Of a stretch of DNA of 37,112 nucleotides, positions 270-37,112 are shown piece after piece. The notes below the pieces were generated by a model. It saw only the letters and a list, made by a program, of their open reading frames with translations, did not search any database and was not told where the DNA came from. A program made the translations under genes and the position numbers. Source of the stretch: Bacteroidales bacterium (GTDB taxonomy: Bacteria > Bacteroidota > Bacteroidia > Bacteroidales > JAIPAP01); contig JAIPAP010000035.1 of NCBI GenBank assembly GCA_021740045.1, positions 1 through 37,112 on the forward strand, given 5' to 3'. How positions within the stretch are numbered: the first letter of the stretch is position 1; every line of letters starts with the position of its first letter.

Positions 270-359
270 AAACTAATATAGATGACAAAATTTACTTAAC
301 TAACCGACATTGAATTAAGAATGTTGAATTACTACGAGCTGCCAGTTAAGATCTACGGG

Positions 360-2475: not shown

Positions 2476-2556
2476 CCAACCTGCAAATCATCCCGGCTTT
2501 CAGGGGATTGGTAAAAGAAGAAAACATCGGAGAATTCCCGGCAAAGCTGGAGGAGA

Positions 2557-3327: not shown

Positions 3328-3329
3328 TC

Positions 3330-3671: not shown

Positions 3672-3798
3672 TATACTTACTTTTTGCTTTAAAGAAAATC
3701 AAGTGTATTCATAGGCGATGAATTATGTTAAAACGCAATGCTTGGTAGCAATAGGTCTATGCTAATAACATGCTTTTCGAAGCCAAAAACGCCTTTGA

Positions 3799-5109
3799 TC
3801 ATTTCACCAGATGCACACTTACCCGTTTGCCATTTCTGTAGGCAACAACAAAGGCATCATACACCCCTTTTTCATGGAGCACCTTAGCATAGGTATTAGC
3901 CACGGTATACCGTTCGAAAGTTCCGGCTACATAGCGGTAAAGGTCACCGTTGTAATATTCGGTAATGTTCTTTCTAATGTTGAATTTATTGGCCAGGGCT
4001 TGCTTCGAAATCCTTTTGCGGGCGGCAAATATTTGTACATGGAAAGTTACATCGTCATAACCCGTATCGGTTGAAACTGGAGACGTGCGTTTTATGGTGA
4101 TCTCTTCCATGGGTTCATCCTCCATTGCAAGCGATTTGGCGGTATCACCTCCCCTTTCGCCCGAAATGGTGAAAGACCCTTCATATTCCGGTGTAAGAAA
4201 CTGTTGCCGTTCTTGAGCGGTCGTATCCATGGGCGCTTCGGTTGCAGCTTTTTCCTTGGGTTTATAATAACCCTCCACATCTGGATAATCAATAAGCATA
4301 GGTTGACCATCTGATGGTCTCGATCTTCCCATGCTTCGAAGACCTGCAAAACTGTATGAAATGCCTACCGAAGTATAGGTAAACATATCATTGAGTCCCC
4401 CTCCTTCATAGGCATCCAAAATATCGGAGTTCACTATGTGGAATGAATGCTCCAGGTGCAGGCTCCACCGTTTATCCAGTTTATAGTCCAATCCCATGCC
4501 CAATGGAAAAACAATTTCGGAGGTCCGTTGCCCCAGGCCTCCTGCCTGCCCGGTTCCGGTCAATTCCTGGCCGGTTGAGGTTTCGAATAGGGTGGTACGC
4601 CAGTTTGCAAAACCCAAGCCTGCCGTGCCATACCACGATAATTTCCGGTTTCGCCGGCTACCCCAAAACGCATAGCTTAAATCGAACTTTCCGTTAAGGT
4701 TAAGCTCAAATAAATCTGCATCGAAATTCAGGTCAATGGCATTTGCGGTATCACTACCATAGCGGTTAAATTCATCAGGGCCTGAGCTAACTATATTGGT
4801 ATTGAGAAGCTGTCCCCTCAACGTGAATAATGGGGTGAACTTGCGTGATACAATCAGGCTATAGGCAAATGGAGATTCACCTCCCAGCTTACCAAAAAAT
4901 CCCTGGTCGGCCAGATTTCCGTGAAATTGTGAAAATCCGAAATTCAGTTGTATCGACCAGTTATTGATCTCGCTATGTCCTCGTCCCTGACGGGCATAAT
5001 CAAGCATAATATTGCCCGATTCCGGATCATCTGATTGGGCATAACCCGAAGTACAGGCTATTATCAATAGCAGGATAAATAAGTATGGTCGTGTATGTTT
5101 ATTTCGCAT
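3799..5109 (-). CDS. Outer-membrane beta-barrel protein with C-terminal SPOR-like domain
   Basis: A 436-residue exported protein. Residues 1-25 form a signal peptide ending SGYAQ; an internal IIAC could be read as a lipobox, but a barrel makes signal peptidase I more likely. Residues about 50-255 alternate aromatic and polar residues in strand-like blocks (WSIQLNFGFSQFHGNL, FAYSLIVSRKFTPLFTLRGQ, LSWYGTAGLGFANWRTTLF) and end in SVGISYSFAGL, typical of an outer-membrane barrel. A linker of about 110 residues, rich in Pro, Glu and Thr, follows. The last 80 residues (FHVQIFAARKRI, LYRYVAGTFERYTVANTYA) look like a SPOR-type peptidoglycan-binding fold. The gene follows the TPR gene by 13 bp. This suggests a barrel tethered to the cell wall; the exact role is unknown. 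Confidence 0.72.
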   Translation of the reverse strand: MRNKHTRPYLFILLLIIACTSGYAQSDDPESGNIMLDYARQGRGHSEINNWSIQLNFGFSQFHGNLADQGFFGKLGGESPFAYSLIVSRKFTPLFTLRGQLLNTNIVSSGPDEFNRYGSDTANAIDLNFDADLFELNLNGKFDLSYAFWGSRRNRKLSWYGTAGLGFANWRTTLFETSTGQELTGTGQAGGLGQRTSEIVFPLGMGLDYKLDKRWSLHLEHSFHIVNSDILDAYEGGGLNDMFTYTSVGISYSFAGLRSMGRSRPSDGQPMLIDYPDVEGYYKPKEKAATEAPMDTTAQERQQFLTPEYEGSFTISGERGGDTAKSLAMEDEPMEEITIKRTSPVSTDTGYDDVTFHVQIFAARKRISKQALANKFNIRKNITEYYNGDLYRYVAGTFERYTVANTYAKVLHEKGVYDAFVVAYRNGKRVSVHLVK

Positions 5110-5122
5110 TTGTATTAATCAT

Positions 5123-6292
5123 TTATTCACAATACTGCCTAACGGCATCATATGCTTGCTCTACACCGTACTGAAATGCCCGGTGCCAATCTTCACATGC
5201 ACTATTGTAGTTACCCATCTTATACTTTGTTACAGCCCGGTTATAATAAGAAATAGCCCAAGCCTTTTGGTATTTCTTATCTTTAGGTTTTAATGAAATC
5301 GCTTTATTGAAATCTCCCAAGGCCTCATCGTATTTCTCGAGCTTGTGCTTGGCACAAGCCCGGTAAGCATATACCAAAAAATAGTTGTTATTGGGGTCCA
5401 TTCGTATGGCCTTATTCAAGTCAGATAGAGCCCCGTTGAAATCACCTGCATTATATTCCAATACGGCAAGGTCGAAAAACTCGTTAAAAGAAGCTGCTTG
5501 ATTCTCCTTGATTTGTTCCAGCACCGTTAATGCCCAAATGAAAGACTTGAATTTGTAAAAGGATACTTCATAATAAGCCTGAGAAAACATTTTTACAGCA
5601 GAAGGGGCTCGAATAAGATTCTGATAAATGTACTTATTGGAGTATGTTCTGATAAGCCTGAAGCGAATGAATTTATCTCCGCCTACCTTTATGGGAAAAA
5701 CACCAAACACAATGTTTGCCGAACCGGTAACCCGCGGACTTAGTGCACGCTCAACACTAGTAGCAATTTCGTTTTTGATGTTTACATCTTCATTTTTATA
5801 ATCAAGAATATGACCACTTGCAAGAGCATCAATACTAACCGAATAGGGGGTACCAAACTCCACATTACGCGGAAGAATTTTTCTAAGGTTGGTTGCCGGA
5901 AATACATAGAAATCGAGTGCATCACGTTCGGAAAAACCTTCCTGTATCTTAGGAAATTCATATTCGGCAACCTTATACTTTATAATCAGGGCCGCATAAT
6001 GCTTATCTTCAATTAGCACCTCCCTTATTTCATATGATTCAAAATTTTCCCGGCCAAGCTTTCTGTCAGCTACATTTTCAGGGTCAACACTGGGAATTTT
6101 GTTTTTGGCATCTATCCAAATGCCGTCATCAGGAAGTGCATACCCTCTAGCTTTTTCGATAGTAGATTGCACATCGCTCACTAAAGGTAAACCGCTAACC
6201 ACAGGCCGCTCAAGATCTTGTGCTTGAATTGACCGGCTTGCCAAAAGCAGTATGAAAAATAGAAAAATGATGTTGATAGCTATACCCCGCAT
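5123..6292 (-). CDS. Secreted TPR-repeat protein
   Basis: A 389-residue protein with an N-terminal signal peptide (about residues 1-24, ending SIQAQ), so probably periplasmic or at the outer membrane. The central part has no domain I recognise. From about residue 270 there are three or four tetratricopeptide repeats, with clear units AVLEYNAGDFNGALSDLNKA, a second at KLEKYDEALGDFNKAISLKP and a third at NRAVTKYKMGNYNSACEDW. TPRs usually mediate protein-protein contacts. It is first in a two-gene unit with the barrel/SPOR protein 13 bp downstream, so the two may form an envelope complex; that is inference from position. A TAnnTTTG-type -7 element lies about 85 bp upstream. Confidence 0.75.
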   Translation of the reverse strand: MRGIAINIIFLFFILLLASRSIQAQDLERPVVSGLPLVSDVQSTIEKARGYALPDDGIWIDAKNKIPSVDPENVADRKLGRENFESYEIREVLIEDKHYAALIIKYKVAEYEFPKIQEGFSERDALDFYVFPATNLRKILPRNVEFGTPYSVSIDALASGHILDYKNEDVNIKNEIATSVERALSPRVTGSANIVFGVFPIKVGGDKFIRFRLIRTYSNKYIYQNLIRAPSAVKMFSQAYYEVSFYKFKSFIWALTVLEQIKENQAASFNEFFDLAVLEYNAGDFNGALSDLNKAIRMDPNNNYFLVYAYRACAKHKLEKYDEALGDFNKAISLKPKDKKYQKAWAISYYNRAVTKYKMGNYNSACEDWHRAFQYGVEQAYDAVRQYCE

Positions 6293-6604
6293 ATTGTCAT
6301 TATATATTCCCTGTCTCTTGCGAGATCATTATACGCAAAAACAGAGTTTTCAGTTTAATGTTTGCTGAATTTATAGCAAATATAAACATTATCGTATTTG
6401 TAATCTCAGCCATCCCTATTATTTACTAATTTTGGCCAATTTACTAAATGTTTTAACCCCAAGCAACCATAGATTTTCAACAACACCCCAAATAACTATC
6501 ATTAAAGGGCTATATGAAAAATATCGATGTCAATTGTTAATTACTTTTTGAAAGCAACCTTTTAGGGATATTATTGGTCTATTATAAAACTGTATCTTTA
6601 TAAG
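6293..6604. promoter_or_regulatory. Divergent intergenic region with an inverted repeat over a -7 element
   Basis: This 312-bp AT-rich spacer separates the divergent TPR gene and lipoprotein gene. It holds a perfect 6-bp inverted repeat, TTTGCT at 6361-6366 and AGCAAA at 6375-6380. The repeat overlaps a perfect minus-strand -7 match, TATATTTG (complement of 6377-6384), though no good -33 TTG is seen at the expected distance. On the plus strand TATCTTTA at 6593-6600 is close to the -7 consensus but would start transcription almost at the lipoprotein ATG. No small gene or RNA was recognised. Confidence 0.3.
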
Positions 6605-23641: not shown

Positions 23642-24418
23642 ATGAAGAAAGCAGACATCATCTTTTTCACAGGCTTTATCTTACTGTTTCTACCCTTTTT
23701 CGCATCCAGTGGGGTTTACGCCTTTTATCACCATTTAAACGCTGACCACCCCTACCTGATGAGCTTTATTAAATTTGCTATTTTGGCTACCATTGGCGAG
23801 ATGATCGCCCACCGCATCAAAACGGGCTTGTACTATGCCAAAGGCTTTGGCTTTATTCCCCGTGCGCTGATTTGGGGTATCATGGGCATTATGATCAAAA
23901 TGGCCTTTGTGATCTTTGCCGCCGGCGCCCCGGTAATGCTGGCTACTATGGGTGTTGAATACCCCACCGCCGTGCCTGCGGAAATTTTGGACCAAAGCAT
24001 TGCCGAGTCGCGTTCATGGTTGCATTTCCTTTCGGCTTTTGCTGTAAGCACTACGTTAAACCTCTTTTTCGCCCCGGTTTTTATGACCTTCCATAAAATT
24101 ACCGATACCCATATTTTGACCGGGAAGGGAAAACTCAACAAATTTTTCACCATTATTCCCTTTGGTGATATTATGGCCAATTTGAACTGGTCGGTGATGT
24201 GGAACTTTGTGTTTAAAAAGACCATTATCCTGTTCTGGATACCGGCCCAAACCATCACCTTTATGTTACCGCCCGAACACCGCATTTTGTTCGCCGCGTT
24301 GTTGAGCATTGTCCTGGGTGTCTTCCTGGCCGTTGCCAGTCTTAAGAGCCGGCCGGAGGAAACAAAACAAGCGGCAAAAACCGAGGAGCTGGAAATGGCT
24401 GATGTGACTGCGGAATAA
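23642..24418 (+). CDS. Integral membrane protein, possibly Mpv17/PMP22-like
   Basis: A 258-residue inner-membrane protein with about five or six hydrophobic segments, starting at the N-terminus (FFTGFILLFLPFFASSGVYAF), then ALIWGIMGIMIKMAFVIFAA, a long hydrophobic part around FLSAFAVSTTLNLFFAPVF, and FAALLSIVLGVFLAVASL near the end. The segment FKKTIILFWIPAQTITFMLP resembles the family motif of eukaryotic Mpv17/PMP22 proteins (W..P.Q..NF..VP), so a distant relationship is possible. The last 25 residues are an acidic, soluble tail. It stands alone on the plus strand. Immediately after its stop lies a remnant of T9SS sorting-domain sequence unrelated to it. Function unknown. Confidence 0.65.
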   Translation: MKKADIIFFTGFILLFLPFFASSGVYAFYHHLNADHPYLMSFIKFAILATIGEMIAHRIKTGLYYAKGFGFIPRALIWGIMGIMIKMAFVIFAAGAPVMLATMGVEYPTAVPAEILDQSIAESRSWLHFLSAFAVSTTLNLFFAPVFMTFHKITDTHILTGKGKLNKFFTIIPFGDIMANLNWSVMWNFVFKKTIILFWIPAQTITFMLPPEHRILFAALLSIVLGVFLAVASLKSRPEETKQAAKTEELEMADVTAE

Positions 24419-24421
24419 GAA

Positions 24422-24471
24422 GCAAACTCCTGCAAAACCGCCCCAATCCATGCTCAATTGTCCTTTTTTAA
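24422..24471 (+). pseudogene. Remnant of the start of a T9SS sorting domain
   Basis: Starting 4 bp after the membrane protein stop, the sequence reads in the plus frame from 24424 as KLLQNRPNPCSIVLF then stop. The first nine residues, KLLQNRPNP, match the start of the sorting domain of the C25 gene (codons from 36851), and the DNA matches at all but about four of 35 positions. No start codon or upstream secreted gene belongs to it. It is a scrap of a formerly larger T9SS cargo gene. Confidence 0.7.
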
Positions 24472-24472
24472 A

Positions 24473-24544
24473 CCATATAAGACACGTAAGGTCATATAAG
24501 GGATTTTTGTAACCTTCTTATGTGTTCTTATATGCCTTATGTGG
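24473..24544. repeat. Long imperfect inverted repeat made of CATATAAG-like units
   Basis: The arm at 24473-24500 and the arm at 24517-24544 are reverse complements at about 20 of 28 positions, around a 16-nt spacer. Each arm contains two or three units of the type CATATAAG/CACGTAAG. It could form a long hairpin that ends transcription of the membrane protein gene, or be an intergenic repeat element. The rest of the 452-bp spacer (24419-24870) shows only the sorting-domain scrap and a small hairpin, CCC-TGTCAA-GGG, at 24628-24639. Confidence 0.55.
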
Positions 24545-24870
24545 TTCTATTTTTAGGGGCTTTAAGAAGCAGGTAAGTAAAAACCAGCAACAATCCACTT
24601 AAAACGAACGCCAACATATTTTTCTATCCCTGTCAAGGGATGATCAGGCACGAGCCGTCATTACAACCGTACTTGATTAAAGTCCATATAAATAACATGT
24701 GTCTTTTAAAATATTAGGTATTATCCGAAATTAGTTTTACCTTGGTTAGAAATTTGGAAAAAACCGTAAGGCTAATATTCAATTGATGTTATTTTACCTA
24801 AGCCTGCTACTTATTGCTCGTACCGCTAAGCCTTGCGAACAAGTATAAAATTAACCATAAAAACATACCA

Positions 24871-26100
24871 ATGAAAACCTTTGCAGTAATTTTGTTAACA
24901 TTGGTTGTGAGCTTTCCGTTTAGCCTAAAAGCCCAGCAACCCGCAGCCGTTCAAAACCTCCAACTGGAAGAAGGCTACCAGCTTGTCTCCACCTATGTTG
25001 ACCCCGATAACCCTGACCTTCTGGAGCTGCTCGAAGAACTGCTCTTTGACGGCAGCCTGGAATTTGTGAGGAATTCCGAGGGCGAGATGTTTCACAAGGT
25101 AGGTTGGGAATGGGTTAACAACATTGGCGACTGGCAAACCAATGAAGGTTACCTTTTTTATATGAATGACCCGGCAACGATAACCATACAAGGGGAACTA
25201 TATGACCCCGGTACTCCCCTAAGCTTAGGTGAGGGCTTTCAGTTTGCCGCCTATTATTACACCGAACCCATGGATGCCCTTGAAACCAGTGCAGAAATAC
25301 TGGATAACCTGGTCTTTATCCGCAATTCCGATGGCAATATGCTGCAAAAAATTGGCCCCAATTGGGTGAACAACATAGGCGATTTCCAATATGGACAAGG
25401 TTATTTGGTAAAAATGAATGCAAGTGATGAATTGGTATACATGGATGACACCACCTTCAATTGCCCCTCCACTTTCATCGATCCCCGTGACGGGCAGGAA
25501 TACGAAGCGGTGATGATAGGTGAGCAGTGCTGGATGGCGGAGAATTTGAATGCAGGAACAATGATATATGGACCGCAACAGGATAATGGAATAATTGAAA
25601 AGTATTGCTATAGTAATGATTCTACTTTTTGTGATGATTATGGCGGGCTTTATCAATGGGACGAAATGATGCAATACGTTGTTGAACCTGGTGTAGTTGG
25701 AATATGTCCGGGTAATGGCGGATGGCACATCCCAATTGATGATGAATGGAAGATCCTTGAAGGTTCAGTTGATAGCCTGTATGGTGTAGGTGATCCGATT
25801 TGGGATACATTTGGCTGGCGGGGATTTGATGCTGGAAAGAATCTTAAATCTACCTCCGGTTGGGATTCGGGATCAGGAACAGACTTGTATGGATTTACAC
25901 TTTTACCCTCAGGCTACAAGCTTGAAGGAGGATTTTTTATAGACGTTCATAATGGAACTTGTCTATGGACTTCAAATGAAGATGGCCCTTATACATCATG
26001 GATGAGGCACTTTACTTCCACTAAAGACATCATTGCACGTTATAATTGGTCAAAGGAAGCTAGCTTTCCTGTAAGATGTATGAAATATGAAGGTATTTGA
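24871..26100 (+). CDS. Secreted FISUMP-domain protein with two copies of a roughly 75-residue module
   Basis: A 409-residue exported protein with a signal peptide (residues 1-22, ending SLKAQ). A TTG at 24814 would add 19 residues before the signal, so ATG 24871 is chosen. Residues 31-108 and 117-190 are two copies of a module with the core FVRNSEGEM, WVNNIGDWQ and EGYLFYM. Residues about 202-409 form a FISUMP domain (Fibrobacter succinogenes major paralogous domain), with IGEQCWMAENLN, WHIPIDDEWKILEG, and the closing FPVRCMKYE. FISUMP domains are typical of surface or secreted proteins, function unknown. No T9SS sorting domain is present. The FG-GAP gene starts 29 bp downstream and shares the module. 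Confidence 0.82.
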   Translation: MKTFAVILLTLVVSFPFSLKAQQPAAVQNLQLEEGYQLVSTYVDPDNPDLLELLEELLFDGSLEFVRNSEGEMFHKVGWEWVNNIGDWQTNEGYLFYMNDPATITIQGELYDPGTPLSLGEGFQFAAYYYTEPMDALETSAEILDNLVFIRNSDGNMLQKIGPNWVNNIGDFQYGQGYLVKMNASDELVYMDDTTFNCPSTFIDPRDGQEYEAVMIGEQCWMAENLNAGTMIYGPQQDNGIIEKYCYSNDSTFCDDYGGLYQWDEMMQYVVEPGVVGICPGNGGWHIPIDDEWKILEGSVDSLYGVGDPIWDTFGWRGFDAGKNLKSTSGWDSGSGTDLYGFTLLPSGYKLEGGFFIDVHNGTCLWTSNEDGPYTSWMRHFTSTKDIIARYNWSKEASFPVRCMKYEGI

Positions 26101-26129
26101 TTAATGTTCAGATAAATAAAAGCTATTAT

Positions 26130-27761
26130 ATGAAATTGAAAAGCAAAATTCTTTTTATAGTGTTATTATCTTCGTTCGTGTTAATAGCTAGTAAAAAATT
26201 ATATAGGAGTGAGTATTTTTTATCCATCCATGCTAATTCAATGAGAATCACCGATATAGAATTGGATGGAGATAATGATATTGTAATTGAACATGGTACA
26301 CTATTTAAAGACAAGTTTTATACCTCCGAAAATGTGGCCATAACAATTGTTGAAAATACAGGATATGGGGATTTTATAATTAAGAATGAAAAAACCTTTG
26401 ATCATCTAACTATTGGAATTCTAACAATGCCTGTAAATAGCGATAATTACAATGATATAATTACCACACATAATTCAAAAATAAGAGTATATTTTAATGA
26501 TGGAGAAGGTAACTTCAATGAATATGAACATTTCGATCTAAATAATGAAGCACGAATGACGGATATAGCCAATGGAGATATAAATGGCGATGGATTACAA
26601 GATATAGTGATTATTTCTCAAGACGATCAGATTTGGGGTATTTTATATAATGATGGAAACGGAGGATTTACAGAACCAGAATATTATCAACTAGGAACAC
26701 CCCTAACTGGTGTGGCATGTGGAGATATAAATGGTGATGGAAGGGATGATATTGTTGTGGGGGGATTTTATACCAATGTTTTTTTTAGTTATGAAAGTGG
26801 TTTTGAATGGCAGGAGTATGCTTTTATGTTTCGAGAATTCTATATAATGGACTTTGATAATGACGGAGATAATGATATTATATGCCAAAGATGGTTCTTA
26901 ACCCAAAGATTAGGTATATTTGAAAACAAAGGGGGGCAGAATCTAGAAATTCATTATTATCAATTTGAAGAATTTAGTGGTCAATTGAGTTGCTCTGATT
27001 TGAATGGAGATTCCCTACCCGAATTAATATTCTCTTCTGATCCTATTCGTATCTATAGAAATTTAGGATCGTATGAACTATCTGAACCAATTGAGTTTGA
27101 AATCGAGACCCATGGTGGTGGTCCTTCAATATATGGTGGGGATATGGAAGGAAATGGATACAACGATTTAGTTGTGTTAATAGATAAGTTAGAAATAATT
27201 CCTAATTTATATATATATTTTCATGATGGGATGTATGACTTTTTTGAATACCCTACCATAAAAATTCAGAATTATTTATCACTTCCTGGATACCATTTTC
27301 ATTCAAGCAGAATACTTCCCTTTGATCCCAATATGACTTCAATCCTCGATACCATAATGAATGGCGAATTGGGTTTTGTACGAAACTCCCAGGGAGAAAT
27401 GCTCCAAAAAGTTGGCGATGAATGGGTCAACGGGATCGGTGACTGGCAAACTACCGAAGGTTACCTGTTCTACTTGAATGACACCGCCAATTTCGATATA
27501 GTGGGCACCTACATCGATCCCCAAACGCCTATAGCCCTGGAAGAAGGCTATCAATTCATCAGCTTCCTTCCCGGCCAGCCCATGAATGCCATGCAGGCTT
27601 TTTATGAAGTTTTATACAGCCTCGAATTTGTAAGAAACAGCGAGGGAGAAATGCTTATGCTCATCGGCAATGAATGGGTTAACAATATAGGCGACATGCA
27701 GCCAAAAGAAGGTTACCTTGTGAAAATGTATACCGGGGATACGCTGGTGTACCCGGATTAG
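26130..27761 (+). CDS. FG-GAP/VCBS propeller fused to two copies of the same module
   Basis: A 543-residue exported protein with a signal peptide beginning MKLKSKILFIVLLSSFVLIA. A TTG at 26097 overlapping the previous stop would be a poor start; ATG 26130 is preferred. Residues about 30-370 hold six or seven FG-GAP-type repeats with calcium-loop motifs (DIELDGDNDIV, GDINGDGLQDIV, GDINGDGRDDIV, DFDNDGDNDII, DLNGDSLPELI), forming a beta-propeller. From about residue 383 the sequence changes to two module copies (GFVRNSQGEMLQKVG, EFVRNSEGEMLMLIG) like those of the gene before it, and it ends there without a T9SS domain. The DNA becomes GC-richer near 27.28 kb, where the change occurs, which supports a fusion. 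Confidence 0.82.
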   Translation: MKLKSKILFIVLLSSFVLIASKKLYRSEYFLSIHANSMRITDIELDGDNDIVIEHGTLFKDKFYTSENVAITIVENTGYGDFIIKNEKTFDHLTIGILTMPVNSDNYNDIITTHNSKIRVYFNDGEGNFNEYEHFDLNNEARMTDIANGDINGDGLQDIVIISQDDQIWGILYNDGNGGFTEPEYYQLGTPLTGVACGDINGDGRDDIVVGGFYTNVFFSYESGFEWQEYAFMFREFYIMDFDNDGDNDIICQRWFLTQRLGIFENKGGQNLEIHYYQFEEFSGQLSCSDLNGDSLPELIFSSDPIRIYRNLGSYELSEPIEFEIETHGGGPSIYGGDMEGNGYNDLVVLIDKLEIIPNLYIYFHDGMYDFFEYPTIKIQNYLSLPGYHFHSSRILPFDPNMTSILDTIMNGELGFVRNSQGEMLQKVGDEWVNGIGDWQTTEGYLFYLNDTANFDIVGTYIDPQTPIALEEGYQFISFLPGQPMNAMQAFYEVLYSLEFVRNSEGEMLMLIGNEWVNNIGDMQPKEGYLVKMYTGDTLVYPD

Positions 27762-27975
27762 GGGGAATGGATTGAAGAATATAAAGAGCTAATAAATAAA
27801 CAAAAGCCCGGCAGATGATTAAAATTCTTTGCTTCTGAAAACAACATAACAAAATGGAAGTGCTATTTGGTATAGCAATTCATATTTTTCTTTGCTGTTT
27901 AAATAGTAGCTTTAATGATTCTCCTTGTCAATTTACTTATATCGGGTATAGCCTCCAAATTCACAAACTGCATTT

Positions 27976-29610
27976 CTAATCGGTATCATCTTTTATACAC
28001 CTTACGGAATAGCCATATTCTCTGTCAATAGGATATCTTGTTATACCATCAAGAAAATTAAAGATTTCTCGGTACCAAGGTTGGCTTGAAGGATTAAAGT
28101 AAGAGGATGTCCAGAAACCAGCTTGCATTCCCTCGCCCCCTGAATTTCCGCCTAATGAGATAAGGCCGGTAGATAATGCCTTGAATTCATATAGATCATC
28201 ACCATTGTATCCATCACCCCAGCTATATGTAGCTTTTAAATGATAACCAGCATCAAAGCCCCGGTCTCCAAGATCATTCCAAATCCAATGACCTACGCCA
28301 TATTGGCTATCCACAGTCCCTTCAAGTACCTTCCATTCATGATCAGTAGGTACATGCCAGCCCTGGGGACATACCCCTTGGGTAGCGGTATCCAGTGTAT
28401 ATTGCACAACCTCATCCCATTGATAAAAGGCACCCGTCTCATCACATTTGTTTTCAAGGTTATTATAACAATACTTCTCTACAGTATCGTTATCGGTCAT
28501 AGGAACTCCACCATCTATACGGGTGCCGTAGTTCAGGTTTTCGGCCATCCAGCATTGTTCACCGATTTGAACTGTTGCATAAACCTTCTCATTTCTGAGA
28601 TCATACAATGAGTCACCACACTGCCATGAAGGGGAAGTAGTAAAAGACCATAAAGGTCCTGTTGTTATATTGCCCGTTTGATCATGTGCATCAACTTTCC
28701 AATAATACGTTTTCTCACTGGTTAAAGTATCCGGTTGAAATACAGTATCAGGTATACCGGCTGCAACTTGCTGCGGAGGTTGCACAGTATCCAGATAAAC
28801 ATCATAAACCAATGAATTCTCCTCCGGGTCGGCACAGCTCCAATGAAGAGTGGTTTCCGGATCCACATTTTGCGCGTTATGCTCAGGGAACGGGTTATAA
28901 GGAGGTTCCGGCGGCTCATTATTGGAGAGAATGCAAGTGTATGTTTTATCTTCATGCGGTTCATCAAACAGGATGGTGTCGTTATAGCCGGTGGCAAAAG
29001 CCTGCATCATAAGAGAGTCACCAGGCCTGAAATGAAATGCGCTATCCGACAACCCATGTTTTGCTGTGGAATTTACCCGTGAAATTAACCCGGTGTATTG
29101 GATCTTTGCCTTTTGACCTCCTTGTTTTGTAAGGTTAATCAGCTTCTTGGTATGCTTTTTATAGCCGTTACTAACTGTTAGAAGCAATGTTGTATAATTG
29201 CCTGACATGATCTTAAACTGATGTATACCTGCCGGGTGCTTTGTTTTGTAATGTGCTAACCGGTTTCCATTCATAGCGGATATGGTTAACACCAACCAGT
29301 TTTTATTTGGAGCATATACGGTTATAGTAGTTGAACCGCTGAATGGATTGGGACTAATTGTCATGATGTCAATCCTGTTAGCGTACTCATTCTCATTGAC
29401 CCCAACGGGATATTCAAGAAGTAGTTCCGGGGATGCACCATAAACGGTGGTATCGCATTCTTTATGTATGTTTACCACATACACACTGTCGAGGGCAAGG
29501 TAATTGCCATTGCCGGCTTGTTCTCCTTCAAACGTAAGAACGATTTGTGCGGTTTGGGAGAATAGCGTTGCGGGCAATAGTACGAAAAATAATAAATACA
29601 TGGATTTCAT
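27976..29610 (-). CDS. Secreted protein with internal sorting-like domain, Fn3-like domain and FISUMP domain
   Basis: A 544-residue exported protein whose signal peptide starts MKSMYLLFFVLLPATLFSQ. ATG 29610 is chosen because the ATG at 29658 would place 16 polar residues before the signal. Residues 83-160 (MTISPNPFSGSTTITVY) resemble a T9SS type A sorting domain, but in an internal position where it cannot act as a C-terminal signal. Residues 235-326 (NEPPEPPYNPFPEHNAQN, YYWKVDAHD) look fibronectin type III-like. Residues 331-544 form a FISUMP domain (IGEQCWMAENLN, GWHVPTDHEWKVLEG, YSVRCIKDD). It is convergent with the FG-GAP fusion gene, with no strong terminator seen in the 214-bp spacer. 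Confidence 0.82.
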   Translation of the reverse strand: MKSMYLLFFVLLPATLFSQTAQIVLTFEGEQAGNGNYLALDSVYVVNIHKECDTTVYGASPELLLEYPVGVNENEYANRIDIMTISPNPFSGSTTITVYAPNKNWLVLTISAMNGNRLAHYKTKHPAGIHQFKIMSGNYTTLLLTVSNGYKKHTKKLINLTKQGGQKAKIQYTGLISRVNSTAKHGLSDSAFHFRPGDSLMMQAFATGYNDTILFDEPHEDKTYTCILSNNEPPEPPYNPFPEHNAQNVDPETTLHWSCADPEENSLVYDVYLDTVQPPQQVAAGIPDTVFQPDTLTSEKTYYWKVDAHDQTGNITTGPLWSFTTSPSWQCGDSLYDLRNEKVYATVQIGEQCWMAENLNYGTRIDGGVPMTDNDTVEKYCYNNLENKCDETGAFYQWDEVVQYTLDTATQGVCPQGWHVPTDHEWKVLEGTVDSQYGVGHWIWNDLGDRGFDAGYHLKATYSWGDGYNGDDLYEFKALSTGLISLGGNSGGEGMQAGFWTSSYFNPSSQPWYREIFNFLDGITRYPIDREYGYSVRCIKDDTD

Positions 29611-29639
29611 AATAATGCTGTATTGGTTTTTGATGGAAT

Positions 29640-29677
29640 AAAAATAGTTGATGAGCAAGAAAAAAGCAACTATTTTT
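29640..29677. repeat. Perfect 11-bp inverted repeat upstream of the FISUMP gene
   Basis: AAAAATAGTTG at 29640-29650 and CAACTATTTTT at 29667-29677 are exact reverse complements around a 16-nt A-rich loop. The repeat sits 30 to 67 bp upstream of the minus-strand start codon at 29610. It could be a leader hairpin, a regulator site, or a terminator for antisense transcription. Confidence 0.55.
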
Positions 29678-30039
29678 GTTAAATAATATATGCCATTGTA
29701 TCAAAAGAGTATAGTAAAGTTATAAATGATTTTGTTTATTTCAAAGTATGGAAAACTTTGGTATAAAGCTAAAGCATAAAATATGGGAAGCTTGGAGCAT
29801 CAATTATTGAAGGGGCAGTATTATTTAAACAGCTTATAAATTGGAAATTTTAGCAAATTTAACTTAAACTTTTCACTAATTTTGAGATGTATTAATAGGT
29901 ATAATTTACATTTGCTTTATTGAGCTCGCTTAACTAACATCATCACTATTCGACGTCAACGGATCATTTTTAAAGTAATTAATTGAATAATAAGGGAATA
30001 GCTGTTTTGTTGATACAGGATTAAAAAACTTCTACCATA
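29678..30039. other. AT-rich spacer without recognised gene
   Basis: This 362-bp AT-rich stretch between divergent secreted-protein genes holds no coding sequence or RNA I can support. It contains AGCAAATTTAA near 29853, a pattern also found in other spacers of the window, and no confident promoter. Confidence 0.5.
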
Positions 30040-31473
30040 ATGAGAAAAATACTTTTAATATTAGCCGGCCTGTTAATGTTATCGTTTTATGCGGATACAA
30101 GAAGTGAGTATAGTATTGCTATAAAAGCAAAGTCTGTATGTCTTAATGACATTGACAGTGATGGTGGAAATGAAATAATTGTGGGACACGGATCAGGTTC
30201 ATCTGACAATACGGCCATTACCATCATGGATAATCTAAACAATAGCGGTATATTCGAAATTGAAAACACCTATGATTATATTGGTAGAGGAATTAATGTT
30301 TTTGCTATAAGGGTAAATGATGATGAGCATTCTGATTTGATTAATATTTATGAAAACGATGATACCAAAAATATAAGAGTCCATTATAATGATGGTAACG
30401 GGAATTTCAGCGAGTATTCCGATTACAGTTTGAATACATCATCAACCATTTTTAATATTGATCACGGTGATATTAATGGAGATGGGCATGAAGATATTGT
30501 TTACTTTTCCCATGTTGATTTTTTTTGGGCTATATGCTATAATGACGGTAATGGAGGTTTTGAAAGCCCAATCGTATATTCTGACCTTTATCCGGCATTC
30601 GATATAACTTGTGGAGATATGGATGGGAATGGCCGGGATGATATTATTATAGGTGGTGCAGCTGTTGCTATTTACTATAGTTACGACACCGGCTTCGTTA
30701 AACACCAGTATGAACATACAGAGCATTCGCTTGAAATTATCGATTTTGACCTGGATGGTGATAATGATCTGGTAAGTGCAACTTGGCTGGGTGGATTTGA
30801 AATGGAAATAGCCGAGAACATCAATAATGAACCGGGAAACTTTAACATTCATTACTACCAACCTTCAGGATTATACACTAATACATTTATTACCTCTGAT
30901 TTTAATAATGATTCATTACCAGATTTATTATTTACTCCATCAAAAGGTCCTTTAAAACTCATTTACAATAAAGATTCATTTAATATCACTGAAGCACAAA
31001 CAGTTAACATCCCAACCTATTGGGAGGATGCCAGGAAATCAGCTTCAGCAGATATGGACGGTAATGGATATAATGATATTGTAACTGTTAGGTACTTCCA
31101 TACATTTTTACCTTCTAATCTCAATATTAAATTCAATGACGGAGAAGGTAGTTTTGTGAATGATCCAATAACCAGTACAAACCAAACTTTATCCCAATAT
31201 AAAAATGAATTTAAGTGTTATCCCAACCCATTTAAAGATGATTTAACAATAGAATTCAAATTAAAGCATCATGCAGATGTGGAAATTTCTGTTTATTCTA
31301 TTCAGGGAAAATTAATTAAAACAATAATCAGAAGTAAGAAGAAAGGAGGTAAACATACCCTAAAATGGCGCGGGCTTGATAAGGCCGCAAAACCATGCAA
31401 GCCCGGCGCCTATATCGTCTACCTGAAGGTAAACGGAATAATCCACCAATCGGTTAAATTAATCAAATATTAA
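30040..31473 (+). CDS. FG-GAP/VCBS propeller protein with T9SS type A sorting domain
   Basis: A 477-residue exported protein with signal peptide MRKILLILAGLLMLSFYA. Residues about 30-375 contain FG-GAP-type repeats (GDINGDGHEDIV, GDMDGNGRDDII, DFDLDGDNDLV, DFNNDSLPDLL, DMDGNGYNDIV), colinear with the FG-GAP part of the 26130-27761 gene, so the two are paralogues. The last 85 residues (YPNPFKDDLTIEFKLKHHA, IQGKLIKTIIRSKK, GAYIVYLKVNG, KLIKY) are a type A T9SS sorting domain, predicting export through the outer membrane and surface attachment or release. It keeps the sorting domain that the paralogue has replaced. Confidence 0.85.
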   Translation: MRKILLILAGLLMLSFYADTRSEYSIAIKAKSVCLNDIDSDGGNEIIVGHGSGSSDNTAITIMDNLNNSGIFEIENTYDYIGRGINVFAIRVNDDEHSDLINIYENDDTKNIRVHYNDGNGNFSEYSDYSLNTSSTIFNIDHGDINGDGHEDIVYFSHVDFFWAICYNDGNGGFESPIVYSDLYPAFDITCGDMDGNGRDDIIIGGAAVAIYYSYDTGFVKHQYEHTEHSLEIIDFDLDGDNDLVSATWLGGFEMEIAENINNEPGNFNIHYYQPSGLYTNTFITSDFNNDSLPDLLFTPSKGPLKLIYNKDSFNITEAQTVNIPTYWEDARKSASADMDGNGYNDIVTVRYFHTFLPSNLNIKFNDGEGSFVNDPITSTNQTLSQYKNEFKCYPNPFKDDLTIEFKLKHHADVEISVYSIQGKLIKTIIRSKKKGGKHTLKWRGLDKAAKPCKPGAYIVYLKVNGIIHQSVKLIKY

Positions 31474-31522
31474 CTTTTTGTCAATATTTATTCAAATACA
31501 ATCTTCCCTACTAAAGTATTAA

Positions 31523-31657
31523 ACCAACAGCTACATGTCCAAAGGAAAACACAGCCTGAACATCAGCGCTGATGACCTGGCTTCCGGTGTTTACTACTAC
31601 ACCCTCGAAATCAATGGTAAAAAAGCCGGTGTGAAAAAGATGGTGGTGGTGAGGTAG
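31523..31657 (+). pseudogene. Orphan fragment matching the 3' end of the C25 gene's sorting domain
   Basis: The plus frame from 31526 reads NSYMSKGKHSLNISADDL, then continues through ASGVYYYTLEINGKKAG to MVVVR and a TAG at 31655. It matches the last 43 codons of the C25 gene (36977-37108) with about 12 differences in 132 nt, mostly silent. It begins abruptly 50 bp after the FG-GAP gene stop, and nothing upstream is homologous. It is a duplicated or stranded sorting-domain end, followed by a strong hairpin at 31699-31731. Confidence 0.85.
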
Positions 31658-31698: not shown

Positions 31699-31731
31699 AT
31701 CCAGCAACCTCCTTGGTGGAAGTTGCTGGAT
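31699..31731 (+). terminator. Strong hairpin downstream of the orphan sorting-domain fragment
   Basis: ATCCAGCAAC (31699-31708) pairs with GTTGCTGGAT (31722-31731), and the loop can add a further CC/GG stem (CCTCC with GGTGG). The following TATTCTTACC has only a weak T-tract. It is probably the terminator of the gene that once ended in the sorting-domain fragment, now possibly used by the FG-GAP gene. Confidence 0.6.
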
Positions 31732-32040: not shown

Positions 32041-33255
32041 ATGAGAAAACTCATCTTAACCCTCATTTTATTTTGCATTATAAGCCATGCTGCACAAGCC
32101 CAAATCACAAGAGGTGCCGAACCTGGTGAAATCTACGTATCCAATGGCTGGTATGGTGATAATCAACAAGGATTAGTTTATTTTATTATCCTCCGATCTA
32201 CCAACCATGGAGAAAGCTTTTCAATTCAGCATGAAAATACGGATCCACCTCCACCAGGGGAGATGAAGATTGTAAAAGTACTGGGCGATGCTGCGCCGGG
32301 TGTATTGTATAACTGGGGTGATTACGAACTTTGGGGCAGTTATGATTACGGAACAAGTTGGAACTATAGAGAAAATTCTCCTGGACAATATTTAAGCGGA
32401 CAAATTGCCGGTAAAATATACCGGATAAATGGAGCGGAGTTGTCAGAAAGTGATGATTTCGGTAACACATTTTCTGTTAAAACAGACCCAATAAACTGTC
32501 CGATCCGGGAATTAGGTTATTACGAAGGGGAATTCTACGGTATAAATGGCAATATTGGCGAAGGACTGTATTTAGATCATACTTTTGATTATGGTGAAAC
32601 GTTCACAGAAATACCCATTGATAGCAGCGTAGCATTCTGGCAAATCTCAGGAAAATACCCGGAAATCTCCCGGGGAACTCAACCCGGAGAATTATACCTG
32701 GTATCCTGGTGGCCACAAGCCCATTACAAAATCTTCCATAGCACCGATTCAGGTTACACCTGGACTCAGCAGTATAAATCTGAATATATTAATTTGTATA
32801 TCTGGGGTGTGCAATACACAGCAGGAAGAGAACCCGGTTCTTTCTATGTAAAAAGAATAAGATTTGATTCGACAGTGACACATTCGATGATATATATTGA
32901 TTATAGCAGTGATTATGGCAAAACATTTACCACCTACTTTCACGAGTTGGATTCAACTTATGTTTCAGCACCGGAGAGCGTAATACAAAATACACCGGTT
33001 TCCGCCTACCCCAATCCATTTTCCCATAAAACCACCATATCATTCCAACTGCCCAGGAATTGTGATGATCCTCTGCTAAATATCTACAATATTCAGGGAA
33101 AGCTAATCAGGCGATTTAACATTAAAGATAAAACCTCACAAACCTGGAAAGGTTGCGACAATGAAGGAAAACCCCTACCCAATGGTATTTATCTGTATAA
33201 TGTCCAATATGATCAAATTCATACCCCAACCAATAAACTATTATTAACCAATTAA
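32041..33255 (+). CDS. Secreted Asp-box (BNR-type) propeller protein with T9SS sorting domain
   Basis: A 404-residue exported protein with a signal peptide ending AAQAQ. At least six Asp-box-like motifs of the form S-x-D-x-G-x-T-F/W are spread through it (STNHGESF, SYDYGTSW, SDDFGNTF, TFDYGETF, STDSGYTW, SSDYGKTF), predicting a beta-propeller like those in sialidases and VPS10/sortilin proteins. The phrases RGAEPGEIYV, RGTQPGELYL and GREPGSFYV mark further repeats. No sialidase catalytic arginines or FRIP motif are apparent, so binding rather than catalysis is likely. The last 80 residues (SAYPNPFSHKTTISF, IQGKLIRRF, NGIYLYNVQ) are a T9SS type A sorting domain. The C25 gene starts 13 bp after it. 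Confidence 0.83.
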   Translation: MRKLILTLILFCIISHAAQAQITRGAEPGEIYVSNGWYGDNQQGLVYFIILRSTNHGESFSIQHENTDPPPPGEMKIVKVLGDAAPGVLYNWGDYELWGSYDYGTSWNYRENSPGQYLSGQIAGKIYRINGAELSESDDFGNTFSVKTDPINCPIRELGYYEGEFYGINGNIGEGLYLDHTFDYGETFTEIPIDSSVAFWQISGKYPEISRGTQPGELYLVSWWPQAHYKIFHSTDSGYTWTQQYKSEYINLYIWGVQYTAGREPGSFYVKRIRFDSTVTHSMIYIDYSSDYGKTFTTYFHELDSTYVSAPESVIQNTPVSAYPNPFSHKTTISFQLPRNCDDPLLNIYNIQGKLIRRFNIKDKTSQTWKGCDNEGKPLPNGIYLYNVQYDQIHTPTNKLLLTN

Positions 33256-33268
33256 AATTTAATTAATT

Positions 33269-36200
33269 ATGAAAAAAACAATTGCCAGTTTAATGGTATG
33301 CTGCTTTTTCAGCAGTATGGCTTTAGCCCAAACATGGGTTGACTTCACCGTATCCGAGCAGGAATCCCCCATTTTTAACGTAATTCAATCCACCAATCAA
33401 GCAGTTGAATTTGATGTGGAAGTTTGCGGAATGTACAAACGAGATCTTACCGAAGATAGTGTTATCTATCAACGGATCAACATGCCGGGAGCAGAGAAAT
33501 CCCGTGAAACAGGAGAACCTGAACTGCCAATCATCAGGAAATTAATTGCTATTCCCGAATGTGACAGCATTATATTTAGTGCCAGTATCACCGGGGACAC
33601 AAGCTTTTCAAATTACACTGTTTATCCGGCACCGGATTATAATGAGGTGCAAACTCCCGATAGTGCCGTATATGTGGAAGAGGTCTTTGCCAAAGACGAT
33701 TCGGTATATTCATTGAATACGTATATGCCCGGAGTGAATGCAGAAATTGTTTCCACCGGGTATCTCCGGGGACAAAAATATGCCGAGGTGGAATTGTACC
33801 CCCTACAATTCAATCCGGTTACAGGTCAGTTAAATGTAAATATAAACTACGAGGTTTCGCTGCAATTTGTAAATTCTACCTCTGATGTGAATGAAAACAC
33901 CGGAATCTTTAACAACGTAGCCGCCAATACCATGCTCAACTATACCTCCAGCGGTATTTCAGCCCTTATAAACGATAATGTCCAGGGTAATGGAACTGTA
34001 CGATGGATTACACTTACTGACCCCTCCGAGGCTTATAACATAGAGGCCGATTACCTGATTATTTGTGCCGATCCGTTTTTCGAGCCCAATAATCCCGGCT
34101 CGGAAGTATTACGCATAGCCAATCACAGGGCATGTTACAACGGTTTTGATGTAGCCATTTTAAATGCTGATAATGTAATTTCTGATGAACTAGGATTTTA
34201 TTATGAAGGATATCCTAATCCCGAATATAAGAAAGAACAACGTATCCGAACATGTATAAAATACATTTACGAAGGGGCAAATGCATCGAATACTTATGAT
34301 GACCGGCTCGCCTATGTTTTGTTAGTGGGGGATTCGGAATATCAAACAAACCTCGGTATGCCATCATCATATGATCCAAATCCCGGAGATTCATGGAACA
34401 ATGATCCATATCCCTCTGACTACTATTTTAGCTGTTTAACAAGTATTAATGGTAATTACGATGATGTTGGAGAATTATTCATAGGCCGGTTTTGTGTGGA
34501 TAATAACCTTCAAAATGGCCTTACCGAACTTCACAATATCATCGATAAAACCATATTTTATGAAACAGAACGGACCTTTGATGGATGGCGGAAAGAGGCA
34601 GGAGTACTTGTTTATGAATTAGGTAGTAGCGGTTACCACAACCTCTATCTTGACTATTGGGAGGAAGTAGCTTCATCCGGTTTTACAGTCCATAAAATAA
34701 ATGATGAATTTCCAAACGCTATTCAAAATACTTATGATGTTCTTAATGATGGAACTTCTTTATTTACATACATGGGTCATGGAGGAAAATATGGCTGGTA
34801 TCTGGATGATGGCACAATACATATATCTGATTTTGAAAACAATTTAACCAATAATCACAAGTCCCCTGTTGTTAATGCATTTGCTTGTATGACAGGTTGG
34901 CTTGATGGTAATTCAGATTGTGTTGCAGAAGCATTGACTACCTATTCCGATAATAAAGGATTCACAGGATATTTAGGATCTGGCAGAACAACGTTTCTAA
35001 ATTATGCAGGTGACGAACCAATAAATAATCCCCCTGAATATTTTCAAGAGTTAATACCTTACGGTATTTTTGAGGCAGAAGCTTATATTGCCGGGGAATA
35101 TATTTTGTTTGCCAAAGCAAACGTGTCAGGTCATAATAATGTATTTGCATTTAATTATTTTGGTGATCCCGCACTCAACGTTATGGCTGAGGGCTACCAA
35201 ATTACCCAGGATGTAGAATTACCCGCCTCCGTTGAAATTTCCAAGGAAATTACAATTACCAACGGAGCTACAGTGACAATTCCGAACAATGGCGTGTTTA
35301 ACCTGAAAGAAGATGGAAAACTGATGATAGATCAGGGTGCGACCCTTGTTATTGAGGATGGTGCTGATTTTTACGGAAATACTGATAATAAAATAACTGT
35401 GAATGGTACCATTCAGATAGGCAGTAACGTAAAATTCTCCCGTCTTGGGGATAGTGGTTATTTTGATGGATTATATCTTATGAACACTACAGCTACAACC
35501 ACATTCACAAATTCAACATTTGAATACACCCGCCTGCATCATTATGGTGACAGCCTTTCCTTTGACAACACGGATCTTACGGATTGTTATACCATCAATT
35601 CCTATAATGGGTCCCTTAACGTAACTTATAGTTATTTTGAGGATTCAAGGCTGTACGCTGAAATTGACGATGCCCCTACAGACAGAGTAGCTACCATACG
35701 TGACAATAATTTTATCAGTTCCTATTCCGATACCATTAATGGAATTGATGTAAATGATTATGATGATTATTTCATTGAAAATAATACTGTTAATGGGTAT
35801 TACAACGGGATTCAGGTTGTTAATGCTGGTGGAGGCACAGCGGGAACTCAAAAGTTGGCAGGTAATGATATAACTAATTGTGCTAACTACGGAATCATGG
35901 TTTATAGCTCAACGGTTGACGTTACCTTGAACAAAGTATATTCAAACGAATATGGTGTGAGATTTAACAACAGGAGCAGTGTGGATTTTTATGGTAATAA
36001 ATTTGCCGGTTCACCGTCGGAAACCCAGTACATTTATGATAATGGACGATATGAGATTTATGCTTCCCGGTATAGTTTCCCAAGAAAGTTTGCTTATAAC
36101 GTGATCATAGACGAAGACAATCAGGGTAATCCAAATGATCCACTTGTTTATTTTAATGTAGGTTCTGGTATTACACCCTCAACCAGGGATGTGGAACATA

Positions 36201-37108
36201 ACTGCTGGGGTAATAATTTCGATTTCTGGGAAGATTTTTATCCCCAGGATTCAAGTCTATGGGATTATCAACCTACCTGGTGCCCTCCAGGAGTAAAAAA
36301 TCAAAGTACCGAACAATCATTATTCGCAGAAGCGCTCAGCTTATTTGAGCAAAGCAATTACACCCAGGCAAAAACCAAGTTCCTCCAGGTGGTGAGTGAA
36401 TACCCTACTACCTTATATGCCCAGGAAGCCTTGAAAGAACTCTTCCGTTTGGAGCAATTTGTGGGCGATGATTACACAAGCCTTAAACAGTACTACACCA
36501 CCAATGAAACCATACAGGGCGATACTACACTGCAACGTGTAGGCGACTTCCTGGCTAACAAGTGTGATGTGGAACTGGAAAACTGGCAACCGGCCATAGC
36601 TTGGTACGAATACCACATCCAATACCCGGAATCTTTTGAAGACAGTGTGTTTGCCATCATCGATCTTGGCTATCTTTACTTGTTAATGGAAAACGGCGGC
36701 GAGAAATCCTATACGGGCAATTTGCAACAACATGTTCCATACTCCAAAGACCAGTTCTTTGCAAAGCGCGATTACCTGCTGTCACTTCTGCCGGGTGAGA
36801 AACAAGGCGAAGAACCCGGCCTGGAGAATATGGAAGGATTGCAGGCCGGCAAGCTCCTGCAAAACCGCCCCAACCCATTCTCCAATAAAACTACCATTTA
36901 CTTTAAGCTGGAAAAACCGGCGACAGTTGCCGTTAAGGTATTCAACAACATGGGCATCCTAAAATACAACTTCACCAACAGCTACATGCCCAAAGGAAAA
37001 CACCGCCTGGAAATCAGCGCAGATGACCTGGCTTCCGGGGTTTACTATTACACCCTCGAAATCAATGGTAAGAAGGCCGGTGTAAAGAAGATGGTGGTGG
37101 TGAAGTAG
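33269..37108 (+). CDS. C25 (gingipain-type) peptidase-like protein with beta-helix, helical-repeat and T9SS domains
   Basis: A 1279-residue exported protein. Residues 1-21 are a signal peptide (ending ALAQ) and about 22-240 a C25-type propeptide region. The peptidase-like domain follows, with YMGHGGKYGW containing His504 and NSDCVAEAL containing Cys551, which correspond to the catalytic His and Cys of gingipains. Residues about 660-990 form a right-handed beta-helix-like region rich in Asn and Gly (FIENNTVNGYYNGIQVV). Residues about 1020-1180 are helical, TPR-like (EALSLFEQSNYTQAKTKFLQ). The end from about 1195 (KLLQNRPNPFSNKTTIYF to KKMVVVK) is a T9SS type A sorting domain. The stop lies 4 bp before the window end. 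The gene follows the Asp-box gene by 13 bp. Proteolytic activity is predicted, not shown. Confidence 0.88.
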   Translation: MKKTIASLMVCCFFSSMALAQTWVDFTVSEQESPIFNVIQSTNQAVEFDVEVCGMYKRDLTEDSVIYQRINMPGAEKSRETGEPELPIIRKLIAIPECDSIIFSASITGDTSFSNYTVYPAPDYNEVQTPDSAVYVEEVFAKDDSVYSLNTYMPGVNAEIVSTGYLRGQKYAEVELYPLQFNPVTGQLNVNINYEVSLQFVNSTSDVNENTGIFNNVAANTMLNYTSSGISALINDNVQGNGTVRWITLTDPSEAYNIEADYLIICADPFFEPNNPGSEVLRIANHRACYNGFDVAILNADNVISDELGFYYEGYPNPEYKKEQRIRTCIKYIYEGANASNTYDDRLAYVLLVGDSEYQTNLGMPSSYDPNPGDSWNNDPYPSDYYFSCLTSINGNYDDVGELFIGRFCVDNNLQNGLTELHNIIDKTIFYETERTFDGWRKEAGVLVYELGSSGYHNLYLDYWEEVASSGFTVHKINDEFPNAIQNTYDVLNDGTSLFTYMGHGGKYGWYLDDGTIHISDFENNLTNNHKSPVVNAFACMTGWLDGNSDCVAEALTTYSDNKGFTGYLGSGRTTFLNYAGDEPINNPPEYFQELIPYGIFEAEAYIAGEYILFAKANVSGHNNVFAFNYFGDPALNVMAEGYQITQDVELPASVEISKEITITNGATVTIPNNGVFNLKEDGKLMIDQGATLVIEDGADFYGNTDNKITVNGTIQIGSNVKFSRLGDSGYFDGLYLMNTTATTTFTNSTFEYTRLHHYGDSLSFDNTDLTDCYTINSYNGSLNVTYSYFEDSRLYAEIDDAPTDRVATIRDNNFISSYSDTINGIDVNDYDDYFIENNTVNGYYNGIQVVNAGGGTAGTQKLAGNDITNCANYGIMVYSSTVDVTLNKVYSNEYGVRFNNRSSVDFYGNKFAGSPSETQYIYDNGRYEIYASRYSFPRKFAYNVIIDEDNQGNPNDPLVYFNVGSGITPSTRDVEHNCWGNNFDFWEDFYPQDSSLWDYQPTWCPPGVKNQSTEQSLFAEALSLFEQSNYTQAKTKFLQVVSEYPTTLYAQEALKELFRLEQFVGDDYTSLKQYYTTNETIQGDTTLQRVGDFLANKCDVELENWQPAIAWYEYHIQYPESFEDSVFAIIDLGYLYLLMENGGEKSYTGNLQQHVPYSKDQFFAKRDYLLSLLPGEKQGEEPGLENMEGLQAGKLLQNRPNPFSNKTTIYFKLEKPATVAVKVFNNMGILKYNFTNSYMPKGKHRLEISADDLASGVYYYTLEINGKKAGVKKMVVVK

Positions 37109-37112
37109 AGAG

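What the first reader, a model, noticed from the sequence alone, without database searches (positions are those of the whole stretch)
24422..31657. Two sorting-domain scars, in order and same strand, bracket a 7-kb block of secreted-protein genes
The scrap at 24422-24471 matches the beginning (KLLQNRPNP) and the fragment at 31523-31657 matches the end (NSYMSKGKH to VVVR) of the same T9SS sorting domain as in the C25 gene. Both are on the plus strand in the right order, with the middle of about 95 nt missing. One reading is that a single ancestral T9SS gene was split by insertion or assembly of the FISUMP/FG-GAP block. The other is two independent recombination events at a repeated sorting-domain sequence. 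Either would mean that sorting-domain DNA serves as a homology site for shuffling cargo genes.
Basis: partly seen in the sequence, partly recalled or inferred. Interest (0 to 1): 0.7.

Follow-up and report, generated by a model that had tools for sequence, protein, structure and literature searches.

The report
Remnants of two lost secreted-protein genes
Two scraps of the tag that sends proteins out through the type IX secretion machine are most likely the leftovers of two separate, decayed copies of a protease-like gene, not one gene cut in half, in a genome where pieces of such genes are sometimes copied from one gene to another.

Summary
Both scraps are real: 24422-24455 matches the start of the C25 gene's sorting domain (CTD; 31 of 34 nt, E 5.9e-7 in this genome), 31523-31657 its end (91%, 135 nt). 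The split-gene reading is not supported. The left scrap runs directly into a palindrome (24446-24563) found at two other places here, both downstream of this CTD's stop codon; it has its own 3' flank. The right scrap is followed by a hairpin like the terminators behind the CTD on contig C146 and behind a homologous gene in order-level relative G097. In G097, genes with this C-terminal region stand next to FISUMP genes at two loci, once upstream (where the left scrap lies), once downstream. Best reading: the cluster once held at least three such genes; two decayed, the C25 gene survives. The wider idea, that sorting-domain DNA is exchanged between cargo genes, is partly supported: near-identical CTDs on divergent bodies occur in the C92 array, in C70/C95, and once in G027; but two pre-CTD segments here show the same pattern. 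No close relative was available for an empty-site test. Published analogue: KLIKK proteases.

The parts
23642..24418 (+). Mpv17/PMP22-like membrane protein gene, intact-looking left neighbour; its stop codon is 3 nt before the left scrap
   Evidence: ORF; Pfam PF04117 23.9 bits, below its cut-off 27
24422..24455 (+). Left scrap: start of the sorting domain (KLLQNRPNP), 31 of 34 nt as in C25 gene 36849-36882
   Evidence: comparison with 150 CTDs
24446..24563 (+). Palindromic 3'-flank element; matches C146rc 340-444 and C87rc 201-307, both downstream of the CTD stop; overlaps the scrap at a short shared CCAT-type stretch
24871..26100 (+). FISUMP gene (ORF listed from TTG 24814; ATG at 24871 read from the sequence); homologues stand beside tail genes in G097
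26097..27761 (+). FG-GAP protein gene, GC 35%, no CTD model matched
27976..29658 (-). FISUMP gene on the opposite strand; sorting-like domain internal (residues 101-174)
30040..31473 (+). FG-GAP protein gene with its own, different sorting domain
31523..31657 (+). Right scrap: last 45 codons of the sorting domain including stop, 91% identical to 36974-37108; a TAA lies directly upstream in frame
31699..31731 (.). Hairpin behind the right scrap, in a stretch similar to the terminators behind the CTD on C146 and in G097 L416 (the pattern scan itself calls a terminator on the minus strand only)
32041..33255 (+). Secreted protein gene with a sorting domain of its own (BNR repeat match below cut-off)
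33269..37108 (+). Peptidase C25 gene carrying the reference sorting domain (36851-37105)
36974..37112 (+). Repeat at the contig edge; 36980-37112 identical to the edges of C146 and C87, so at least two genomic copies; the inferred repeat start 36974 is also where the right scrap's match begins

Best explanation
The two scraps are remnants of two different former copies of a T9SS cargo gene whose C-terminal part (tail plus sorting domain) is that of the C25 gene at 33269. These copies belonged to a cluster with FISUMP genes, an arrangement still present in relative G097. The left copy stood upstream of the FISUMP gene at 24871 and lost its body and most of its sorting domain; the deletion end lies in a short shared sequence (CCAT-type) and joins the first 25-34 nt of the domain to the copy's own downstream palindrome. 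The right copy kept the last 45 codons and its terminator. The genes between arrived or moved separately. Shown: the matches, the flanks, at least two further copies of the domain end, the G097 arrangement. Inferred: the order of events, the deletions, that the left copy was a full gene, and that copies stayed alike through duplication or gene conversion.
For: The left scrap is joined to the palindrome, which blastn with 24410-24500 and a pattern scan found at three places: here, C146 and C87. The right scrap's flank aligns with the terminator stretches of C146 and of G097 L416 (0 of 500 dinucleotide shuffles reached either score). In G097, tail genes with 57-60% aa identity lie beside FISUMP homologues at two loci: in C183 the tail gene and, 27 nt later, FISUMP, FISUMP; in C161 FISUMP, FISUMP, then the tail gene. 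Right scrap versus C25: 12 base changes in 11 codons, 7 of them synonymous, as if it diverged mostly while still coding. Edges of the block share only 9-10 nt and its GC is uneven.
Against: No relative with the ancestral locus was found. G097 is of another family, the shared order is limited to tail gene and FISUMP genes, and its tail genes have a different head. The palindrome lies at different offsets behind the CTD in C146 and C87, so it could be mobile and have inserted into the left scrap. C87's flank does not show the terminator (180 of 500 shuffles reach the score). The right scrap's flank lacks the 75-nt stretch that C146 and C87 share after the stop. A first test of the right scrap's longer flank against C146 with plain shuffles was borderline (score 73, 300 shuffles mean 50, maximum 74). 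Nucleotide self-comparison of the window showed no trace of a lost gene body beside either scrap.
Confidence: 0.7

Rival explanations
1. One ancestral T9SS gene was split in its sorting domain by insertion or assembly of the 7-kb block.
For: Same strand, right order, complementary parts of the same domain.
Against: The left scrap already carries a downstream palindrome of its own; 91 nt are missing; edges share only 9-10 nt and the genes between differ in strand and GC; no trace of a gene body left of the scrap in the nucleotide self-comparison.
Confidence: 0.07
2. The scraps are products of sorting-domain exchange: pieces of CTD DNA copied by gene conversion or illegitimate recombination into these places, without full genes ever having stood there.
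For: Near-identical CTD patches on divergent bodies in this genome (C92 b/c/d: 24-28 of 27-30 4-fold sites equal in the CTD against 2-6 of 9-14 in the 67 codons before; C70/C95: 31 of 32 against 8 of 22) and in G027 C15/C22 (26 of 27 against 6 of 11). An inferred second incoming copy of the contig-edge repeat starts at the same base as the right scrap.
Against: The right scrap has terminator-like DNA of the family behind it, the left has the family's distal flank, both lie in intergenic DNA, and G097 has real tail genes next to FISUMP genes.
Confidence: 0.17
3. Chance or convergent similarity of conserved sorting-domain motifs.
For: The start motif of the domain is conserved; another CTD (C147) shares 86% over 29 nt with C25.
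Against: E 5.9e-7 and about 5e-49; the best of the other 149 CTDs compared shares 17 of 25 bases.
Confidence: 0.02

Closest known systems
KLIKK proteases of Tannerella forsythia (PMC4404884, abstract and passages read)
   Same: [quoted passage not shown] the authors suggest that existing protease genes were fused to common end sequences.
   Different: There the genes are whole and the passages I saw describe the likeness of the domain without a DNA-level test; here the scraps are broken remnants and synonymous sites of other genes were compared.
Gingipain/HagA module rearrangement in Porphyromonas gingivalis (PMC5266723, passages read)
   Same: C25 proteases with a CTD, and modules recombined between surface protein genes; gene conversion is discussed.
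   Different: The passages concern adhesin modules and alleles between strains; here the C-terminal tail and sorting domain within one genome.
Gene decay leaving partial-gene remnants after duplication (general knowledge, no call)
   Same: Short coding pieces in intergenic DNA with flanks of the former gene.
   Different: Only that two remnants of one family bracket a cluster of other secreted-protein genes.

Membership tests
T9SS type A sorting domain (TIGR04183/PF18962), for the scraps | Full domain of about 72 residues at a protein's C-terminus | tested here: not met
   The scraps hold 34 nt and 45 codons; neither is among the 150 scored hits (150 of 185 candidates scored). The C25 gene's own domain is over the TIGR04183 cut-off (26.3 against 23 bits) and just under Pfam's (26.6 against 27).
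Remnant of a gene of the C25-tail family | Piece of the family's 3' end together with the family's own downstream DNA | tested here: met
   Left: palindrome as behind the CTD on C146 and C87. Right: terminator-like stretch as on C146 and in G097 L416, not as on C87.
Remnant of a gene of the C25-tail family | Intact orthologue at the same position in a close relative | not testable with these tools
   No same-genus or same-family genome was offered; best named matches to the left neighbour are 63% identical or less.
Gene split by an inserted unit | Two halves that join without loss, with boundary repeats or an insertion unit between | tested here: not met
   91 nt missing, palindrome at the left junction, edges share only 9-10 nt.
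Gene conversion of sorting-domain DNA | Abrupt rise of synonymous identity confined to the domain between otherwise divergent genes | tested here: inconclusive
   Met for other genes: C92 b/c/d, C70/C95, G027 C15/C22; not met in the C5 array; pre-CTD segments of C60 and C105 show the same outside the domain. For the two scraps it cannot be decided.

The most novel reading that the evidence does not exclude
In T9SS bacteria the 3' end of cargo genes (sorting domain, sometimes with tail and terminator) is a recurrent recombination tract by which secretion tags are copied between cargo genes and heads are exchanged, as in the tail found here with a C25 head and in G097 with a C13-like head; the two scraps are failed or decayed products.
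Probability: 0.3. Interest if true: 0.6.

Novelty: new member of a known kind. Interest (0 to 1): 0.35.

Why it matters
It turns a suspected split gene into a readable history of a secreted-protein cluster, and it shows with synonymous sites that sorting-domain DNA has been copied between otherwise divergent cargo genes in this genome and once in another. If general, this would help explain how different proteins in one bacterium come to carry matching secretion tags, and it warns that a shared tag says little about kinship of the cargo. Such repeats also break assemblies: the window itself ends inside one.

Tried and rejected
Empty-site test. The left neighbour protein was sought in 59 order-level relatives plus the own genome (matches in 23 of 60, own included); 18 of those loci were read at up to 20 kb, and 80 loci from genome contigs (best 80 of 239). 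Besides the neighbour itself, other window genes gave hits in 2 of 18 and 7 of 80 loci, single genes at 21-43% identity. Two of these nine (L114, L157) are hits to the C25 gene's own N-terminal and peptidase part (24-26%) within about 10 kb of the neighbour; I did not follow them. None shows the FISUMP/FG-GAP block.

Whether the C25 gene continues into C146 or C87 cannot be told from the contigs. Rfam at gathering thresholds: 0 hits in the window. Plasmid and phage collections: no match. C29's contig edge near a CTD as a further shared CTD: only weak short matches. Short CTD ORFs in G007 as orphan cassettes: 8 looked like small or fragmentary genes, dropped. C25:304 and C10:568 pattern hits as further palindromes: read as another repeat, and blastn found no likeness to the three copies. 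A PDB search with the G097 head gave nothing useful.

CTD-specificity control, pairs with 85% or more over at least 100 nt. Own genome: CTD 4 pairs (three from one array) among 150 genes, segment just upstream 2 pairs among 149, next segment 0 among 147, DNA after the gene 3 pairs among 145. G027: 2 among 85, 0 among 83, 0 among 82, 0 among 81. G007: 0 among 29 in each. Exclusivity to the CTD was therefore rejected. Pairs not counted as exchange: G027 C88/C9 (CTD 93%, but bodies equally alike and at contig ends); G027 C14/C15, C83/C85 and C47 (69-85% over the CTD; C47 86% over 112 nt only); G007 C73 (80%, 14 of 27 4-fold sites).

Papers: eight searches and passages of five papers. In what these showed me I saw no account of gene conversion of T9SS sorting domains; the library is open-licence and lacks most subscription journals.
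Full report
What is there. The relatives listed were of the same order only, and the best named matches to the left neighbour protein were Bacteroidales and related MAGs at up to 63% identity. The reference gene at 33269-37108 has a C25 propeptide, a C25 peptidase domain and a sorting domain. The right scrap (31523-31657) is 91.1% identical over 135 nt to the last 45 codons of that domain; the left (24422-24455) matches its first 34 nt at 31 positions. In a comparison of a 25-nt piece of the left scrap with 150 CTDs of the genome, C25 shares 23 bases and the next best 17, so chance likeness of motifs is a poor explanation.

More copies. The last 133 nt of the window are identical to the edges of contigs C146 and C87. 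These two share 139 identical nt at their edges and 95.6% over 204 nt, running 75 nt past the stop codon, then diverge. Among 46 contig ends compared, the start of C37 shares exactly 139 nt with C148 too, so 139 looks like the assembler's overlap; one other overlap, 68 nt between C4 and C19, does not fit, and C6 shares a similar length shifted by one base. If 139 is right, the repeat begins at 36974, the base at which the right scrap's match begins, and a second copy not in this bin enters the repeat there. This is inference.

Left scrap. From 24446 the sequence matches C146 (340-444 from its edge; 87.6% over 105 nt) and C87 (201-307; 86.0% over 107 nt). It is a palindrome (fold z-score -3.4). 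blastn with 24410-24500 and a pattern scan with up to 3 mismatches found it at these three places; two further weak pattern hits (C25, C10) belong to another repeat. In C146 and C87 it lies downstream of the CTD stop. Domain start and flank overlap in a CCAT-type stretch, which fits a deletion between short like sequences. So the left scrap has a right end of its own; it need not be the missing half of the piece at 31523. An insertion of a mobile palindrome remains possible, since its offset behind the CTD differs between C146 and C87.

Right scrap. It has an in-frame TAA directly upstream and ends with the family's stop. Of 12 base changes to C25, 7 are synonymous and 5, in four codons, are not. 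If about a quarter of random changes were synonymous, 7 or more of 12 would be expected about once in 70 cases (my arithmetic, not a call). Behind it a hairpin at 31699-31731 lies in a stretch that aligns with the terminator stretches behind C146 and behind a homologous gene in G097: 0 of 500 dinucleotide shuffles reached the score in either case. An earlier, cruder test against C146 alone was borderline, and C87's flank shows no likeness to the G097 terminator (180 of 500 shuffles).

The relative. Of 119 genomes searched with the CTD DNA (own included), the own genome and one other, G097 of another family of the order, matched. G097 has two genes that match C25 residues 654-1266 at 57-60% over 611-616 aligned residues. 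Their heads are not C25. Pfam finds nothing in the whole proteins; the first 653 residues of one give a weak C13 (legumain-type) match, E 8e-4, 19.4 bits against a cut-off of 22.8; I also recognise C13-like His and Cys motifs, from memory. At C183 the tail gene is followed after 27 nt by two FISUMP genes; at C161 two FISUMP genes precede the tail gene. These FISUMP genes are 56-63% identical to the window gene at 24814. The left scrap lies upstream of that FISUMP gene, the right scrap and the C25 gene downstream of it, so both are positions where G097 has real genes. At 4-fold sites the CTD of the C161 copy agrees with C25 at 16 of 30, somewhat above the 22 of 83 in the first 510 columns of the tail; the C183 copy does not (5 of 18 against 22 of 86).

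The block. Its genes differ in strand and in GC (34-35% for the FG-GAP genes, 42-44% for the FISUMP genes), and the edges share only 9-10 nt. Nothing found marks it as one inserted unit.

Is sorting-domain DNA exchanged? The genome has at least 150 CTDs (150 of 185 candidates scored, all 150 over the family cut-off), and all 150 were compared. Near-identical CTD DNA on divergent bodies was found in the C92 tandem array (genes b, c, d) and between C70 and C95. For C92 b/c, 4-fold sites agree at 28 of 30 in the CTD and 2 of 9 in the 67 codons before. For C70/C95 it is 31 of 32 against 8 of 22; here the pre-CTD stretch is still 72% alike in protein, and the patch runs from just before the CTD to just past the terminator. 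The C5 array shows no such jump. In G027 (85 of 113 listed CTDs read) C15/C22 shows it (26 of 27 against 6 of 11). In G007 (29 read) one tandem pair has an 80% CTD on bodies 17-19% alike, but only 14 of 27 4-fold sites are equal. Control: the segment just upstream of the CTD also gives two pairs of 85% or more (C60, C105), whose CTDs differ. Patchwise copying between secreted-protein genes is thus supported; a special role of the sorting domain is not proven.

Conclusion. Most likely two remnants of separate genes of one family, in a cluster whose pattern survives in G097. Ordinary gene decay explains the scraps; exchange of sorting-domain DNA is a plausible background process with a published analogue in the KLIKK proteases (PMC4404884, abstract and passages).

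Noticed in passing
L213 (G000:C92:34000-43500), genes at 2213-3667, 3692-5137, 5161-6591: Tandem secreted genes whose bodies are 23-57% alike in protein but whose CTDs are 86-94% alike in DNA; the patch starts at the PNP motif and for b/c ends shortly after the stop.
   Followed up: yes
G000:C70:21948-22160 (L289) and G000:C95:12298-12510 (L296): Two genes on different contigs share CTD plus terminator at about 95%, ending abruptly just past the T-run.
   Followed up: yes
G000:C60:93657/95609 and G000:C105:21556/26439: Secreted genes of one contig share a 190-199 nt pre-CTD segment at 92-93% although their CTDs differ: patch copying outside the sorting domain.
   Followed up: partly
window 188-300: A 113-nt interspersed repeat with at least 13 other near full-length copies at 90-96% in the genome; window 135-193 belongs to a second, shorter repeat family.
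   Followed up: no
L417 6877-10182 and L416 6478-9769 (G097): Tail of the C25 gene joined to a C13-like head; the L416 copy is split into two overlapping ORFs, perhaps a frameshift.
   Followed up: partly
L114 and L157: Two distant relatives have a C25-type hit (24-26%) within about 10 kb of the left neighbour's homologue.
   Followed up: no
27976-29658 (-): FISUMP protein with a sorting-like domain in the middle (residues 101-174, 23.4 bits against a cut-off of 23) instead of at the end.
   Followed up: no
G000:C103:39984, C156:39992, C31:4614 (downstream of CTDs): The DNA after three CTD genes on different contigs shares a repeat of 113-219 nt at 90-95%.
   Followed up: no
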